This document shows positions 30,604-35,927 of a stretch of 64,000 nt of DNA, piece after piece. The first letter of the stretch is position 1. Each line of letters starts with the position of its first letter. Position numbers and translations under genes: made by a program. This DNA is from Heliomicrobium modesticaldum Ice1 (GTDB lineage: Bacteria; Bacillota; Desulfitobacteriia; Heliobacteriales; Heliobacteriaceae): positions 2,533,501 to 2,597,500 of the forward strand of contig NC_010337.2 in the NCBI RefSeq assembly GCF_000019165.1, in the 5' to 3' direction. The notes beneath the pieces are model-generated. The model was not told the origin of the DNA, did no database searches, and saw only the letters and a list, made by a program, of their open reading frames with translations.

Positions 30604-30611
30604 GATGAAAA

Positions 30612-30646
30612 AAAACCTGTCGGGCATGATCCTGCAGGTTTTTTTA
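30612..30646. terminator. bidirectional terminator
   Basis: AAACCTG / CAGGTTT hairpin with A-run on the left and T-run on the right, between two convergent genes; it touches the stop codon of the amidoligase gene. Confidence 0.8.
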
Positions 30647-32137
30647 GATCCGGTTGGCGCTGCCGCCAAGCCAGGAGATGCTGTAGCGGGGACGGGGGAC
30701 ATAGCGGTAGCGATGGATCCCGACGGGCAGTTTCCAAGCGCGGCGGATATCAACGTCCTCCTGGACATAGCCCCCTTCTTCAGCCATCGTCCAGATTCGC
30801 TGAGTCAGGAGGCGCATTGTTTCTGAATCGTCAAGGGCGACCAAATCGAGCAGTGTCTGCCGCAAAAAGGGCATGAGCGCCTTTCGCTTCCCGCCGTAAA
30901 ACGCCTCTTGCACCTCGGGCAGCAGGAAGTCCCACCGCTCCATCCTCCGATAGTGCTGAGCCACAACAGCGGCCAGGTGCAAGGCGATCCAAGCTGTCTC
31001 CGGAGAAGCCAGCCATGATCCCGGGGTACGATATTCAAAACCATGAGGTTTCACCCGGAAATCGCCGAGAGCGCCGTAGAACTGGCGGCGCCGGGCAGCC
31101 GTCTCCGGGTTTTCCAAATACAGCAGCGGCAATGCCAGGTATTGATCGAGGGCGCGAATGAGACGGCTGTTCGGCTGTAGTCCGCCGAAATGGATATGAC
31201 CGCCTGTCGGATAACCGGGATAGGGTTCTGATCCGGTCACCCAGGCGATGTTGGCATAGGGACAGAGACGGTTCGCCTCATTGAGGACATTACGCAACTG
31301 CCGAAGCGCCTCAACGGCGTTTTCTGCTGGCGCCGGGCGGACTTCAGCCAAGGGTAAGTCGTCAGACGCCCCGAAAGCTCGTCGATTGTCGCAACCGACC
31401 GTCCCCGTGCGCGGAAAAAACCGGGAGGCCGGCACCATGCGCCGACCGGGAACGAGGGAGAGCATAAACTCGGGATCTGAGCCGATAGTCACAGAGGACT
31501 TTTCCTGCCACTCCCGGACGGACGTTGCGATCGCTTCGGCGTAAGCCTGGGCCAGCCTCTTGCGGACCACAGGCGCAGGGTCGATGCCGAGGATGATGGG
31601 GCCGCGAGAACGGTTGACACCCAGGTGGACTCTGCCAAAATCAATACTCAGACAGTGCAGCGCCCGGATGGCTGTGCTGACCATCCGTTCCTCTTCCCAG
31701 GGCGTCAACTGTTCGACCCAATGAAAGGCAGGCGCCACCGATTTGTTAGGCAGTAGATCACGCAGCTGCTGTGTAATCAAGACCTTACGCTGAACGGCAA
31801 CAACACGGCTATCCCATAGATAGATGAGGTATTCTTTCGGCCAGGCGGAGAAAGGCCACCGGCTGGAATCCTCCCCGAGCAACGCCTGCAGGTGATTTTT
31901 TTGCAGCACCTTTTCTACCGTATCAAAATCGGTCGCCGGGGAAGCGACCGCCCGCACATTGAACAGCCGCTGGGCGACTGCCGAATGACTCTCCCTCCCT
32001 GCCCCCCATTCGATCCACCAGTCGACCGGTTCTTCCGGCCCCTGCCGGCCAGCGGTCACGTTGACCCCGCGAGCAGACAACCGGCGCGTCAACTCCAATA
32101 CGCTTGAATTTGCTTCATGGCGAATATATATTTTCAC
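30644..32137 (-). CDS. putative amidoligase (phage-type COOH-NH2 ligase 2 domain)
   Basis: 497 residues. The C-terminal half carries IGSDPEFMLSLVPGR, SDDLPLAEVRPAPAEN, GGHIHFGGLQ and FEYRTPGSWLASPET, the pattern of COOH-NH2 ligase type 2 proteins (related to glutamine synthetase/gamma-GCS folds), first noted in phiEco32-like phages. It should join a carboxylate to an amine using ATP; the substrate is unknown. GTG 32137 has GGGGAG 4 nt upstream and overlaps the preceding ATP-grasp gene by 23 nt. Last gene of a four-gene operon. Confidence 0.75.
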   Translation of the reverse strand: MKIYIRHEANSSVLELTRRLSARGVNVTAGRQGPEEPVDWWIEWGAGRESHSAVAQRLFNVRAVASPATDFDTVEKVLQKNHLQALLGEDSSRWPFSAWPKEYLIYLWDSRVVAVQRKVLITQQLRDLLPNKSVAPAFHWVEQLTPWEEERMVSTAIRALHCLSIDFGRVHLGVNRSRGPIILGIDPAPVVRKRLAQAYAEAIATSVREWQEKSSVTIGSDPEFMLSLVPGRRMVPASRFFPRTGTVGCDNRRAFGASDDLPLAEVRPAPAENAVEALRQLRNVLNEANRLCPYANIAWVTGSEPYPGYPTGGHIHFGGLQPNSRLIRALDQYLALPLLYLENPETAARRRQFYGALGDFRVKPHGFEYRTPGSWLASPETAWIALHLAAVVAQHYRRMERWDFLLPEVQEAFYGGKRKALMPFLRQTLLDLVALDDSETMRLLTQRIWTMAEEGGYVQEDVDIRRAWKLPVGIHRYRYVPRPRYSISWLGGSANRI

Positions 32138-33221
32138 AAAACTCCCCCCTCCGAACCGCCAGATATCTGAGGTACGATGCCAACAGATAGTCGCTTTTCC
32201 GTTGAATCCAAGGTTCGTCAAAACGTCCCGGCTTGGCATTGATCTCCAGAAGCCATAAACGTTCGCCCCTCTGTTCTAGACCCATATCCAATGTCAAAAT
32301 CCCAAAGTGCTCTCCACTGCCGGCTTCGAGCGCACGGGCTGCCGCAATGGCCGCTGTCGCGATTTCTGATTCGATGGCTTTCCAACGAAAGCGGTCGAAC
32401 CGGAGGCGCAGCAGCTGCTCCCGGCGAAGGATCTTCCCTCCGTTGGGACGGTGGGTAACCACGTGACCAGGCGCAGCCAGCCGGATGCCGGCATCGACAT
32501 AAGTCCATCGGCCTCGACCGTCTTTTTGGACGAGGACACGAAAGTCATAGGGCCGGCCATCAATGTGATCAAGCGACAAGGCCTGCTGGCACAGGTAGTC
32601 GCGTTGGTTTAGCAGACTATCAAGCCAAGCCAGCAGTTCCTGTCTATCGTGGAGGGAAGACGTGAGAGCGATCTTCTTGCGGGCCTCCGTCACCTGCCAG
32701 GCGGGACCGTTCTGACGGATCCGAAAGATCCCTTCGCCGCCGCAGCTGTCAACTGGTTTCAGATACAAGCAGGATCGGTGCGCCAACATGGCCAGCACGT
32801 CTGAAGGCGACGGCTGCAGTGACGTTTCCGGCAGGTACTCAGCAACTGCGCTGCCCGATAAGGTACGGTAGAGAACAGCCTTTGACAGGTAGCCCGGATT
32901 GAAAAGGACATCCCCCTGCTGCGTTAAAGCGCGCAGGCGTGACTGCACCGCAGGCCGTCGCTCCCAACTGCGGTTGAGGATACGGTTGTAGAGAATTTTT
33001 GGCGCTGCCTTGTGTTCTCCATGCCAACGCCGTCCCACCCCCGGCCGCCAGACCCTCACGTACCCTTTCTGTCCCAGGTCATCAACAGCCACGGCGACGG
33101 CATTAATCCCCCGCAGGCGCAAGGCATTCACTGTTTCGGCGATCGCTGGCGACCACCGGCCAAAAGGTGCAGTTTTCGACCCTTCGCCGGCAGCCAGAAT
33201 CCCAACATAAGGCCCTGTCAT
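32115..33221 (-). CDS. YheC/YheD-type ATP-grasp protein (third of three)
   Basis: 368 residues. ATP-grasp fold of the YheC/YheD family, linked to the spore surface in Bacillus. Visible: SCLYLKPVDSCGGEGIFRI (ATP loop), RPYDFRVLVQKDGRG and the metal-binding LWLLEINAKPGRFDEP. The N-terminal portion (VGILAAGEGSKTAPFGR) is that of YheC. Start ATG overlaps the stop of the next upstream gene as ATGA, and its own end overlaps the amidoligase start, so the operon is translationally coupled. The reaction is unknown; ATP-grasp enzymes usually ligate carboxylates to amines. Confidence 0.88.
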   Translation of the reverse strand: MTGPYVGILAAGEGSKTAPFGRWSPAIAETVNALRLRGINAVAVAVDDLGQKGYVRVWRPGVGRRWHGEHKAAPKILYNRILNRSWERRPAVQSRLRALTQQGDVLFNPGYLSKAVLYRTLSGSAVAEYLPETSLQPSPSDVLAMLAHRSCLYLKPVDSCGGEGIFRIRQNGPAWQVTEARKKIALTSSLHDRQELLAWLDSLLNQRDYLCQQALSLDHIDGRPYDFRVLVQKDGRGRWTYVDAGIRLAAPGHVVTHRPNGGKILRREQLLRLRFDRFRWKAIESEIATAAIAAARALEAGSGEHFGILTLDMGLEQRGERLWLLEINAKPGRFDEPWIQRKSDYLLASYLRYLAVRRGEFCENIYSP

Positions 33222-34552
33222 GGTGCGCTGTCCCTTCCTCCATCCTCAAATCCGTCCAAGAAGCGCCCATAGGCAATGGGCCGCTCCAGGGAAAGACGGA
33301 CGAGCCGCGGATCCCCCTCCCCTTCATCGAGCCTTTTGAAGGGTTTGGCGTTGATTTCCAACAACCAGACCTTGCCGCTTCGATCAATGGCCATGTCCAG
33401 TCCCAATTCACCCAGCGTCAATCCGGCACTCTCCTCCAAGATACGGGGCAGTGCTCCCCCCCATCGCTGCAATTCTCTGAGGATGGTCGACCGTTTTCGC
33501 TTCGACGGCAACGAGGCGGCTTTCAAAGTATTGAGGATGCCCATCGCTTTTCCGCCTTGGCTGAGGTTAGAGGTGAATTTGCCCGGTGGAGCGATCCGGC
33601 CGAACGCCTTAGTGATCCCCCATTTCCCTCGCCCGTCTTTCTGCGCCAGCAGGCGGATGTCGAAGGGCGCCCCATCGATCAAGGCCAGGCGCAACCCCTG
33701 CTGTGCCACAAAGGCAGTTCGTTCAAGGAGGCCTTTGATCTTGGCTTCAATCGCGTTTCGCGTGTACGCCAAGCCCAGGGTGACTGCTGATTGACAGTTG
33801 ATCCAGGAGTACCCTCCTGACGGGTGAAGGCCGATCCGATAGATGCCGTATCCCTGGGTCCCATGGATCGGTTTGATATAGACGACACGGTGTTCTTTCA
33901 GCAAGGGCCAGATATCCTCCGCTTTCTGCAACAGGCGCGTTTCCGGCAGAAGCGACCGGACAGCGGCATGCTGCTGGAGCAGACGGTGGGTCTCCCACTT
34001 GTCGAGGTAGCGGGGATTAAAGAGAATCAAGCCCGGTATTTCGAACAGACGATTTTTGCATTCGATGACCTCCGGCAGATTCTCTACCTTTCGCGAAGGA
34101 ATTCGGTTATAAACGACCCGGGGGACGGGGAAGGTCTTCTTGCGCCACTCATCACCGACGAGGATGACGCCTGTCACCGTCCGCTCCTCCCAATCAATAT
34201 CCTGAGGACTAAAAACGACGGCAATCACGCCCATGTCACGGGCGTAGCGCTGGGTTTCTTTAAGGTGAGACGACCAGAGGTAGGATTTGTTTGGATAACG
34301 GTAAGAGAAAATACCAAGCAGAGGACCTGCGACAAAAGCCTGCTCCTCCTTCGAGTAGGTGAGTTGATAGGGTAGATCGGCAGGCCAGTGCAGGCCGGAC
34401 AGCACGCCCGGAGCGAGCTGAGACTGCCCTTCGGCTGAAACAATACGGACAGTCGCCTGCCGGGAAAGCACGCCGGCGCGGATGAGGACTGCTTTCCCCG
34501 CTTCGACGCCGATTGTCCCGGCCTGGTGGGCCGTCAGGTAGATGGTGCCCAT
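33218..34552 (-). CDS. YheC/YheD-type ATP-grasp protein (second of three)
   Basis: 444 residues. It has an N-terminal beta-rich extension of about 90 residues (MGTIYLTAHQAGTIGVEAG) like that of YheD, then the ATP-grasp part: VVYIKPIHGTQGYGIYRI, PFDIRLLAQKDGRGKWG, ELGLDMAIDRSGKVWLLEI followed by NAKP. ATG 34552 lies 5 nt after the stop of the upstream gene; the ribosome site is weak (GGTGAG), consistent with coupling. Confidence 0.88.
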   Translation of the reverse strand: MGTIYLTAHQAGTIGVEAGKAVLIRAGVLSRQATVRIVSAEGQSQLAPGVLSGLHWPADLPYQLTYSKEEQAFVAGPLLGIFSYRYPNKSYLWSSHLKETQRYARDMGVIAVVFSPQDIDWEERTVTGVILVGDEWRKKTFPVPRVVYNRIPSRKVENLPEVIECKNRLFEIPGLILFNPRYLDKWETHRLLQQHAAVRSLLPETRLLQKAEDIWPLLKEHRVVYIKPIHGTQGYGIYRIGLHPSGGYSWINCQSAVTLGLAYTRNAIEAKIKGLLERTAFVAQQGLRLALIDGAPFDIRLLAQKDGRGKWGITKAFGRIAPPGKFTSNLSQGGKAMGILNTLKAASLPSKRKRSTILRELQRWGGALPRILEESAGLTLGELGLDMAIDRSGKVWLLEINAKPFKRLDEGEGDPRLVRLSLERPIAYGRFLDGFEDGGRDSAP

Positions 34553-34556
34553 GCTC

Positions 34557-35630
34557 TCACCCGGCCTCTTTCCCTGCCAGATACCGCGCATATTCCAAGG
34601 GTCGGCGGACCGCCGTGAGGCGCCCTTGCAAGTCGCCGATGCGACTGAAGATGCCCCGCCCGGGGCGTGAATTGGCTTCTAAAAACCATACCCTGCCTTC
34701 GCGATCAACCAGGAAGTCAAGGCCTAGTTCTGCCAGTCCCGGGTAGTGGCGGGACAGGGCGTGGGCGATGCGCAGGGACAGCGCAAAAACCTGTTCCGCC
34801 GTCACATTAACGCCACTCTCCGCCAGCGCCTCCGAAAGCGGCGCGGCGCTGGCGCCGGTGTGCAGGTTGCAGGTGATCCCATTACCCGCCACCCGTGCGC
34901 TGCCCCCAGTGACCTCCCATTGCCCGCGCTTCCCCCGCTGGACCAGGACGCGCAGGTCATAGATGCGACCCTTCCAGCGAGCCGGTTCGATGGCCCGCTG
35001 GATCAGGTAGCGCTGCCCTAACGTCCGGCTCTTGAGCCACCGCCAGGCTGCCTTGCGTCGCAAGTGCTGTCTCTGCCCGCCCGTCGGCTCAAGGACAACC
35101 TCTTCTTCTCCGGCTAGGGACATGCGGATGATCCCCTTGCCTTTTGACCCCTTGTCCGGTTTGAGGTACACCTTCCGCCACGCTGCCAACTTGGACGACC
35201 ACCCCCGCTCTCCCGTGAGCAATCGCGTTTCCGGCAGGTGGGGAGCGATAGCCGGATCATGGAGCAGACGCCGGTAGACGCCGTATTTGCCACCGAAGGG
35301 GGGATTGAAGATGGGAATTCCCCGCAGCTGAAAGGCCCGCCTGCAAGAGGCTGCTTGCAAATCATGGGGGATATAGCGGTCATAGACGACATCCGGGATG
35401 GGCGTTCGTCGCAGAATCCAGCGCTGTCTCCGGCTGTCATAGACATACCCTTTCACTTGACAGCGCTGCCAGTCGACATAGTTTGGCGGGAAAACGACCA
35501 GGGTGATATCCATTGTCTTCGCCAACAGCGCCATCTGCCCGAAAAATAGCCGGTTGCCACGGAAATTTTCCCGAATGGTTCGGGGATGAACGAGCATGCC
35601 GAGAATGATCGGTTCACACCCCCTCCCCAA
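34557..35630 (-). CDS. YheC/YheD-type ATP-grasp protein (first of three)
   Basis: 357 residues from the TTG at 35630. ATP-grasp motifs: KVYLKPDKGSKGKGIIRM, RIYDLRVLVQRGKRGQW, LDFLVDREGRVWFLEANSRP. It resembles YheC, with IILGMLVHPRTIREN near the start. The true start is uncertain: a strong GGGGAGGGGG lies inside the first codons of the TTG reading, so a start at a nearby ATT or at ATG 35597 is possible. First gene of the operon. Confidence 0.85.
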   Translation of the reverse strand: MGRGCEPIILGMLVHPRTIRENFRGNRLFFGQMALLAKTMDITLVVFPPNYVDWQRCQVKGYVYDSRRQRWILRRTPIPDVVYDRYIPHDLQAASCRRAFQLRGIPIFNPPFGGKYGVYRRLLHDPAIAPHLPETRLLTGERGWSSKLAAWRKVYLKPDKGSKGKGIIRMSLAGEEEVVLEPTGGQRQHLRRKAAWRWLKSRTLGQRYLIQRAIEPARWKGRIYDLRVLVQRGKRGQWEVTGGSARVAGNGITCNLHTGASAAPLSEALAESGVNVTAEQVFALSLRIAHALSRHYPGLAELGLDFLVDREGRVWFLEANSRPGRGIFSRIGDLQGRLTAVRRPLEYARYLAGKEAG

Positions 35631-35640
35631 GTCTACTGCA

Positions 35641-35808
35641 CTATATGTAAAGCCCCCCCGACTGGTGAGCCGCGCTCGACTTTTCCCGTAAGGCCGTCAC
35701 CTCTGGGGTAACTGTGTTTTTCATTGGCCGGGCACAACCGGTTACAAACAGACCGATGACGAGAAACAGCAAGGGGATCAGCAAAAGGGGCCATTTCTTT
35801 TGAGACAA
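35641..35808 (-). CDS. small predicted lipoprotein
   Basis: 55 residues from a TTG start. A KK-containing n-region, a hydrophobic core (WPLLLIPLLFLVIGLF) and a lipobox ending VTGC give a classic lipoprotein signal, leaving a mature part of about 30 residues rich in Thr, Ser and Ala. The ribosome site (GGCGGTG) is weak. It lies 10 nt before the ATP-grasp operon on the same strand and could be its first member. No family recognised. Confidence 0.5.
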   Translation of the reverse strand: MSQKKWPLLLIPLLFLVIGLFVTGCARPMKNTVTPEVTALREKSSAAHQSGGLYI

Positions 35809-35927
35809 TAGAAACACCGCCTTAGAAGGAAGTTTCGGCGGTTATATCTTTGCTCACTGAGATAAAGATATACTGGCACACCTTCCCGCCAAGCCGTCTA
35901 TCGTACGTATCTTCTCTTGGCAGACAA

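What the first reader, a model, noticed from the sequence alone, without database searches (positions are those of the whole stretch)
30644..35808. Operon of three YheC/YheD ATP-grasp proteins, a phage-type amidoligase and a small lipoprotein
Four genes overlap or nearly abut (ATGA overlap, 23-nt overlap, 4-nt gap). Each of the four is predicted to join a carboxylate to an amine with ATP. A tiny lipoprotein gene lies 10 nt upstream on the same strand. YheC/YheD are known as spore-associated proteins of unknown reaction. Four ligases in series suggest stepwise synthesis of a peptide or poly-amide, perhaps a spore-coat or envelope polymer. I know of no described product.
Basis: partly seen in the sequence, partly recalled or inferred. 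Interest (0 to 1): 0.65.

Follow-up and report, generated by a model that had tools for sequence, protein, structure and literature searches.

The report
Spore-coat peptide-ligase operon in heliobacteria
Four adjacent genes that look like amide-bond-forming enzymes are switched on by a late spore-formation promoter conserved in all heliobacteria examined, so this phototroph probably decorates its spore coat with ligase-built peptides; the gene grouping was already predicted to be coat-related, but nobody knows the product.

Summary
The four-gene operon is real. Pfam finds three YheC/D ATP-grasp proteins (PF14398) and one PF14395 COOH-NH2 ligase. It is intact in eight of nine heliobacterial genomes (split across contigs in the ninth). 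PF14395 always co-occurs with PF14398 (37/37 of 299 genomes drawn from the phylum). In ten other families the module sits beside cotE, the outer spore-coat gene; heliobacteria lack cotE.

New here:
(1) A consensus sigma-K (late mother-cell) promoter, TCACC-N15-ACATATAGTG, precedes the first ligase gene in 9/9 heliobacteria. In 80 named loci, 18 of 28 such sites lie at starts of genes of this module (expected about 1).
(2) The three YheCD paralogues belong to three ancient orthologous classes, all with intact ATP-grasp residues. A model of one is closest to RimK (Z 23).
(3) The 'amidoligase' carries an unannotated N-terminal RimK-like ATP-grasp domain whose metal ligands are not conserved, ahead of a YbdK/GCL/PafA-like ligase domain.

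The 'lipoprotein' ORF overlaps the promoter, was not found in the other heliobacteria checked, and is not part of the unit.

Best reading: a late-sporulation module that adds amino acids to a spore-coat protein or peptide. Chemistry, substrate and product are inferred. By my memory of Pfam text, a 2009 study already predicted coat or cell-wall modification, so the kind is known.

The parts
35639..35668 (-). sigma-K-type promoter TCACC-N15-ACATATAGTG for the ligase operon
   Evidence: Matches the B. subtilis sigma-K consensus KCACM / GCATANNNTA, gap 14-16 (PMC3416734; PMC517825), except for the first and last base of the -10 block; present 9/9 in heliobacteria; strict form found only twice in the 3.08-Mb genome
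34557..35630 (-). First YheC/D-type ATP-grasp ligase (start codon uncertain, TTG 35630 is the ORF limit)
   Evidence: PF14398 E 2e-70; catalytic K, DxR, D, ExN invariant; member of a 42-sequence clade from 11 families
33218..34552 (-). Second YheC/D-type ATP-grasp ligase, 444 aa, with an extra N-terminal domain of about 75 aa
   Evidence: PF14398 E 2.6e-73; AlphaFold2 pLDDT 93.7; residues 77-433 match RimK Z 23.2, ArgX 22.6, glutathione synthetase 22.4
32115..33221 (-). Third YheC/D-type ATP-grasp ligase, 368 aa, the class most often next to the amidoligase
   Evidence: PF14398 E 1.3e-65; 39-sequence clade, support 0.99
30644..32137 (-). COOH-NH2 ligase, 497 aa: N-terminal degenerate RimK-like ATP-grasp domain (1-211) plus GCL/YbdK/PafA-like ligase domain (214-470)
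   Evidence: PF14395 E 2.2e-103; AlphaFold2 pLDDT 88, pTM 0.90; VIA Z 16.5 to RimK for 1-211 and 17.1 to the YbdK-family protein 1tt4 for 214-469
30605..30644 (-). Terminator-like hairpin directly after the last stop codon
   Evidence: Fold -17.1 kcal/mol, z -5.2 against shuffles, followed by a U run
35641..35817 (-). Lipoprotein-like ORF, judged NOT part of the operon
   Evidence: Overlaps the operon promoter; not found at this place in the other heliobacteria; no Pfam family above cut-off

Best explanation
The operon is a late-sporulation module. In the mother cell, sigma-K RNA polymerase transcribes four ligase genes from the promoter at 35639-35668. Three non-redundant YheC/D ATP-grasp enzymes, which resemble RimK, LysX/ArgX and glutathione synthetase, each activate a carboxylate as acyl phosphate and join it to an amine. 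The fourth enzyme uses a gamma-glutamylcysteine-ligase/YbdK/PafA-like domain for a further carboxylate-amine ligation; its own N-terminal RimK-like domain has lost the metal-binding residues and probably holds the substrate. Together they add short, template-free amino-acid chains or cross-links to a spore-coat protein (or build a coat-embedded peptide). Shown by computation: gene content, conserved order, three orthologous classes, intact ATP-grasp motifs, fold matches, sigma-K-type promoter, cotE linkage elsewhere. Inferred: actual ligase activity, order of steps, the substrate being a coat protein, and the product.
For: Pfam assignments. 37/37 PF14395 genomes also have PF14398, against 52/262 of the rest, p 5e-23. 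CotE in 23/37 PF14395 genomes against 17/262, p 2e-14; cotE lies on the same strand, next to a ligase gene, in ten families. SpoIVA in 36/37, the exception being a 61%-complete genome. Sigma-K motif 9/9 in heliobacteria; 28/66 operon heads against 9/348 neighbouring genes, p 7e-18; 18 of 28 strict consensus hits in 80 named loci lie at starts of genes of this module, expected fraction 0.035, p 6e-20. Invariant ATP-grasp residues in all three paralogues. RimK/ArgX/GSH-synthetase fold, Z 22-23. YbdK/GCL/Dop/PafA fold with invariant residues in the fourth protein. Heliobacteria sporulate and encode sigma-K but lack most known B. subtilis cot genes (PMC7143216, PMC9147875). B. [quoted passage not shown]
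Against: Heliobacteria and Syntrophomonadaceae have no cotE beside the operon, and all nine heliobacteria lack CotE altogether. B. subtilis yheC and yheD are reported under sigma-E with SpoIIID, not sigma-K (PMC517825). The stand-alone heliobacterial amidoligase shows no sigma-K site with this pattern. ATP-grasp folds also include kinases (PPIP5K, Z 19), so fold alone does not prove amide ligation. The genomes compared are related, so the p-values overstate independence. No substrate gene was identified.
Confidence: 0.6

Rival explanations
1. The enzymes make a free small peptide or polyamide (like glutathione, cyanophycin or a protective metabolite) that accumulates in the mother cell or spore core, rather than modifying a coat protein.
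For: Glutathione synthetase fits nearly as well as RimK (Z 22.4 against 23.2), and the combination of a GCL-like domain with ATP-grasp proteins mirrors glutathione synthesis. No substrate protein was found next to the operon in heliobacteria.
Against: cotE adjacency in ten families points to the coat; RimK, ArgX/LysX and TTLL (protein-modifying ligases) are among the best fold matches.
Confidence: 0.25
2. The operon modifies the peptidoglycan cortex or vegetative envelope, not the coat.
For: D-Ala-D-Ala ligases share the fold; an AstE/AspA-type zinc peptidase that also matches Peptidase_M99 (a cell-shape carboxypeptidase family) lies beside the amidoligase in five other families.
Against: The peptidase is not next to the heliobacterial operon. 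Sigma-K acts late in the mother cell, as does the coat programme; cortex genes are reported under sigma-E in B. subtilis (PMC7911427).
Confidence: 0.08
3. The proteins are structural coat components derived from ligases and no longer act as enzymes; B. subtilis YheD strongly self-associates and forms a shell.
For: YheD shell and self-interaction (PMC7911427); the N-terminal domain of the fourth protein has lost ATP-grasp metal ligands.
Against: K, DxR, D and ExN residues are 99-100% conserved in 139 YheCD sequences, and 29 columns are invariant in the PF14395 protein, as expected for working active sites.
Confidence: 0.07

Closest known systems
Firmicute YheC/YheD - PF14395 amidoligase - CotE gene neighbourhoods (Iyer et al. 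2009, PMID 20023723; content recalled from the Pfam texts, paper not held)
   Same: Same two ligase families in one cluster in spore-formers, proposed from context to act in spore coat or cell-wall modification.
   Different: Heliobacteria lack CotE; here the promoter, orthologous classes and extra N-terminal ATP-grasp-like domain are documented; two further PF14395 genes in the genome, one fused to a YheCD domain.
B. subtilis yheC-yheD
   Same: PF14398 proteins tied to sporulation; YheD surrounds the spore (PMC7911427).
   Different: Two genes without an amidoligase (PF14395 rings in no control genome, B. subtilis included); reported under sigma-E and SpoIIID (PMC517825), whereas here the promoter is of sigma-K type.
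RimK, LysX/ArgX (protein-carboxylate amino-acid ligases)
   Same: Best structural matches of the second YheCD protein (Z 22-23, rmsd 2.6-3.1) with ATP-grasp residues present.
   Different: About 15-20% identity, not recognised by the RimK Pfam model; substrate unknown.
phiEco32-like phage COOH-NH2 ligase
   Same: Shares the PF14395/PHROG 3815 ligase domain.
   Different: Viral relatives match mainly residues 188-483, the ligase domain; none covers the N-terminal ATP-grasp-like domain.
Bifunctional glutathione synthetase GshF (GshAB)
   Same: A GCL-type domain and an ATP-grasp domain on one chain (fold match Z about 14-15 to the GCL part).
   Different: Order reversed here, and the ATP-grasp domain has lost its metal ligands.

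Membership tests
Pfam PF14398 ATPgrasp_YheCD (three proteins) | Score above the curated cut-off (26.8 bits) over the whole domain | tested here: met
   237, 247 and 222 bits, nearly full-length profile
Pfam PF14398 ATPgrasp_YheCD (three proteins) | ATP-grasp catalytic residues K, K, DxR, D, ExN | tested here: met
   Conserved at 99-100% in 139 sequences and present in all three paralogues
Pfam PF14395 COOH-NH2 ligase (fourth protein) | Score above cut-off (25 bits), complete domain | tested here: met
   345 bits, profile 1-254 of 254; GxDPEF, ExRP, GGHxH, RR, FEYR motifs invariant or nearly so
Coat-linked amidoligase/YheCD/CotE module | PF14395 and PF14398 genes in one cluster | tested here: met
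Coat-linked amidoligase/YheCD/CotE module | cotE adjacent | tested here: not met
   No CotE in any of nine heliobacterial genomes, though present next to the module in ten other families
Sigma-K regulon (mother cell, late) | KCACM - 14-16 nt - GCATANNNTA promoter upstream | tested here: met
   TCACC-N15-ACATATAGTG, 9/9 heliobacteria; first and last base of the -10 block differ from the B. subtilis consensus
Sigma-K regulon (mother cell, late) | Transcription dependent on sigK | not testable with these tools
   Needs expression data
RimK family (protein amino-acid ligases) | Recognised by the RimK sequence models | tested here: not met
   No RimK Pfam hit up to E 1 and only 13-15 bits to the rimK models of NCBIfam, cut-offs 143-314
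RimK family (protein amino-acid ligases) | RimK-like fold with ATP-grasp site | tested here: met
   Z 23.2, rmsd 2.9, 274 residues
RimK family (protein amino-acid ligases) | Adds amino acids to a protein carboxylate | not testable with these tools
   Needs enzyme assay

The most novel reading that the evidence does not exclude
Many Bacillota spores carry a class of coat material made without ribosomes: amino-acid chains or isopeptide cross-links built on coat proteins by a fixed set of three RimK-like ligases and one GCL/PafA-like ligase under sigma-K. In heliobacteria this module persists without CotE and would be a main way of making the coat.
Probability: 0.3. Interest if true: 0.75.

Novelty: new member of a known kind. 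Interest (0 to 1): 0.5.

Why it matters
YheC/YheD and PF14395 proteins occur across many spore-formers but, as far as the held literature shows, no reaction is known for either. Placing the operon under a sigma-K-type promoter, sorting the ligases into three conserved classes plus one two-domain ligase, and removing the lipoprotein from the unit gives a clear experiment: delete the module and analyse the coat by mass spectrometry. For heliobacteria, whose known coat genes are mostly missing (PMC7143216, PMC9147875), it is a good candidate for how their coat is made.

Tried and rejected
Lipoprotein as an operon member: rejected, because the promoter overlaps its end and it was not found at this place in other heliobacteria. 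Sigma-70 promoter for the operon: no minus-strand site in the scan. Sequence search of solved structures with P0004 and P0002: nothing useful. Cluster-12 protein near the stand-alone amidoligase as a hidden CotE: profile comparison negative (probability 0.4%). Sigma-K site upstream of the stand-alone amidoligase: not found. Literature searches for experiments on this gene grouping found none in the held library; the 2009 prediction paper is not held.

Full report
What is there. The window is bases 2533501-2597500 of a single-contig genome of 3,075,407 bp. By size (from memory) it is Heliomicrobium modesticaldum. Its family (f1) is Heliobacteriaceae: contigs of G004, G006, G007 and G008 have exactly the lengths of named Heliobacterium chlorum, Heliophilum fasciatum, Heliorestis acidaminivorans and Heliobacterium mobile contigs. 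Pfam gives PF14398 (ATPgrasp_YheCD) for the first three and PF14395 (phiEco32-like COOH-NH2 ligase) for the fourth, all far above cut-off. The fourth gene starts best at GTG 32137 after a GGAGG-type ribosome-binding stretch, giving 497 aa.

Distribution. All nine heliobacterial genomes carry the operon, with the order YheCD-YheCD-YheCD-amidoligase; in one MAG it is cut by a contig end inside the fourth gene. In an even draw of 299 genomes of the phylum, PF14395 occurs in 37, and every one of these also has PF14398 (p 5e-23). 36 of the 37 have the spore-coat ATPase SpoIVA; the exception is 61% complete. A scan of named GTDB contigs found 270 relatives, the best 80 in Heliobacteriaceae, Syntrophomonadaceae, Thermincola, Symbiobacterium, Thermaerobacter, Paenibacillus, Thermoactinomycetaceae, Aneurinibacillus and unplaced Clostridia. 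Of the 46 such loci of at least 15 kb, 43 carry a YheCD or cotE gene beside the amidoligase.

Neighbourhood. I clustered the genes around the module in the fetched loci. The commonest partner is CotE (PF10628, E 1.7e-32), on the same strand and next to a ligase gene, usually 30-240 nt away, in 23 genomes of ten families; some have two tandem copies. CotE is absent from all nine heliobacteria. Other repeated partners are an AstE/AspA-type zinc peptidase, usually convergent with the amidoligase (five families), and a GNAT acetyltransferase overlapping or abutting a ligase gene at the end of the cluster (three families).

Promoter. Directly before the first ligase gene the window has TCACC-N15-ACATATAGTG on the minus strand (35668-35639). 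The B. subtilis sigma-K consensus is KCACM and GCATANNNTA with a gap of 14-16 (PMC3416734; PMC517825). Sigma-E shares the -10 element but has T instead of C at position 4 of the -35 element (PMC517825). The same element is present upstream of the operon in 9 of 9 heliobacteria, with a spacer of fixed length but diverged sequence, and in several it follows a T-rich, terminator-like end of the preceding unit. The strict form occurs only twice in the whole genome. In other families a looser form stands before cotE or a YheCD gene: 28 of 66 operon heads against 9 of 348 neighbouring genes (p 7e-18). In the 80 named loci, 18 of 28 strict hits are at starts of genes of this module against an expected fraction of 0.035 (p 6e-20). 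These genomes are related, so the p-values overstate independence, but seven or so families contribute. A hairpin with a U run follows the last stop codon, so the transcription unit is promoter - four ligases - terminator. The lipoprotein-like ORF ends inside this promoter and was not found in that place in the other heliobacteria; it is not part of the unit.

The three YheCD proteins. In a tree of 139 sequences the three paralogues fall in three separate clades, each with one copy per heliobacterial genome and each spanning 9-11 families. This is what one expects of three different, non-interchangeable steps. The ATP-grasp residues (lysines, DxR, D, ExN) are 99-100% conserved and present in all three. 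The AlphaFold2 model of the second protein (pLDDT 93.7) matches RimK (Z 23.2, rmsd 2.9, 274 residues), ArgX/LysX (22.5), glutathione synthetase (22.4) and TTLL6 (19.5), but also PPIP5K kinases (19.4). Sequence models of RimK do not recognise it, so it works like RimK at most; it is not filed as RimK. Its first 75 residues form a separate domain that was not tested on its own.

The fourth protein. Its model (pLDDT 88, pTM 0.90) has two domains. Residues 214-470 match YbdK-family proteins (Z 17.1), Dop (15.6), plant glutamate-cysteine ligase (15.1) and PafA (14.8); 29 columns are invariant among 51 relatives. Residues 1-211, to which Pfam assigns nothing, match RimK (Z 16.5), and a profile comparison aligns 146-190 with the C-terminal catalytic strand of YheCD (E 7e-5, probability 62%). 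The positions that correspond to the RimK metal ligands, by my alignment to the RimK sequence recalled from memory (171, 184, 186), are H, G and D here and variable in the family, so this domain is probably not catalytic. Viral relatives cover mainly the ligase domain and none covers the N-terminal one.

How it most likely works. Late in sporulation the mother cell makes the four proteins. The three YheCD enzymes and the GCL-like domain form successive amide bonds, most likely on a coat protein or a coat-embedded peptide. Shown by computation: genes, order, classes, motifs, folds, promoter, partners. Inferred: enzymatic activity, order of steps, substrate and product. Main rivals are a free peptide product (0.25), cortex or envelope modification (0.08), and a structural role without catalysis (0.07).

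What is known. B. [quoted passage not shown] yheC and yheD are reported as sigma-E genes activated by SpoIIID (PMC517825). A 2012 survey saw no CotE in clostridia (PMC3533761); the cotE genes next to this module in Thermincola and others extend that. Heliobacteria make endospores and encode sigma-K but lack most B. subtilis cot genes (PMC7143216, PMC9147875). From memory, the Pfam entries for PF14395 and PF14398 cite Iyer et al. 2009 for a role in spore coat or cell-wall modification on the basis of YheCD and CotE neighbourhoods; a later paper of the same group refers to such operonic linkage (PMC4431377). The module is therefore a new member of a known, untested kind. The promoter, the three classes, the hidden ATP-grasp-like domain and the persistence of the module without CotE are what this analysis adds; whether Iyer et al. 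had some of these could not be checked.

Noticed in passing
L053:4556-5194 (genome 1259555-1260193), + strand: A ~190-aa protein without a significant Pfam hit, conserved in all nine heliobacteria a few genes from the stand-alone amidoligase, preceded by two sigma-K-type sites in eight of them and one in the ninth: a candidate coat protein. Profile comparison with CotE was negative.
   Followed up: partly
L053:7542-9071 and L063-L070: A stand-alone PF14395 amidoligase gene conserved in all nine heliobacteria between spoVG and glmU, without a sigma-K site by the pattern used; its upstream region holds a conserved CGTCTACTATTCCACAT stretch and, in several species, a GACAAAATTTTGTC palindrome.
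   Followed up: partly
L054:6564-9338 (genus-specific; also L072, L073): A 924-aa fusion of PF14395 and PF14398 domains in which several otherwise near-invariant ligase residues are changed (P223 to V, E369 to Q, R371 to L), suggesting altered function.
   Followed up: partly
L278:1501-1662 (genome about 1676600): The only other strict sigma-K match in the genome stands before a 33-aa Arg/Cys-rich ORF (MNRRRCHRRRRVRVINLRPGQTAVVRCRCCCND), a possible tiny coat peptide, with a reverse-transcriptase-like ORF, perhaps a group II intron, just downstream.
   Followed up: no
window 35597-35630: The first ligase gene has no ATG/GTG/TTG at normal distance from its GGGGAGGGGGTG ribosome-binding stretch; comparison with relatives suggests an unusual start codon (ATC or ATT) or a short leader.
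   Followed up: partly
L140, L142, L162, L164, L199, L225: Two tandem CotE-family genes next to the module in Thermincola and relatives, although a 2012 survey (PMC3533761) saw no CotE outside bacilli.
   Followed up: partly
L132, L134, L136, L141, L144, L165: AstE/AspA-type zinc peptidase genes (also matching Peptidase_M99), usually convergent with the amidoligase, in Syntrophomonadaceae and four other families; they could trim or cleave the amide product.
   Followed up: no
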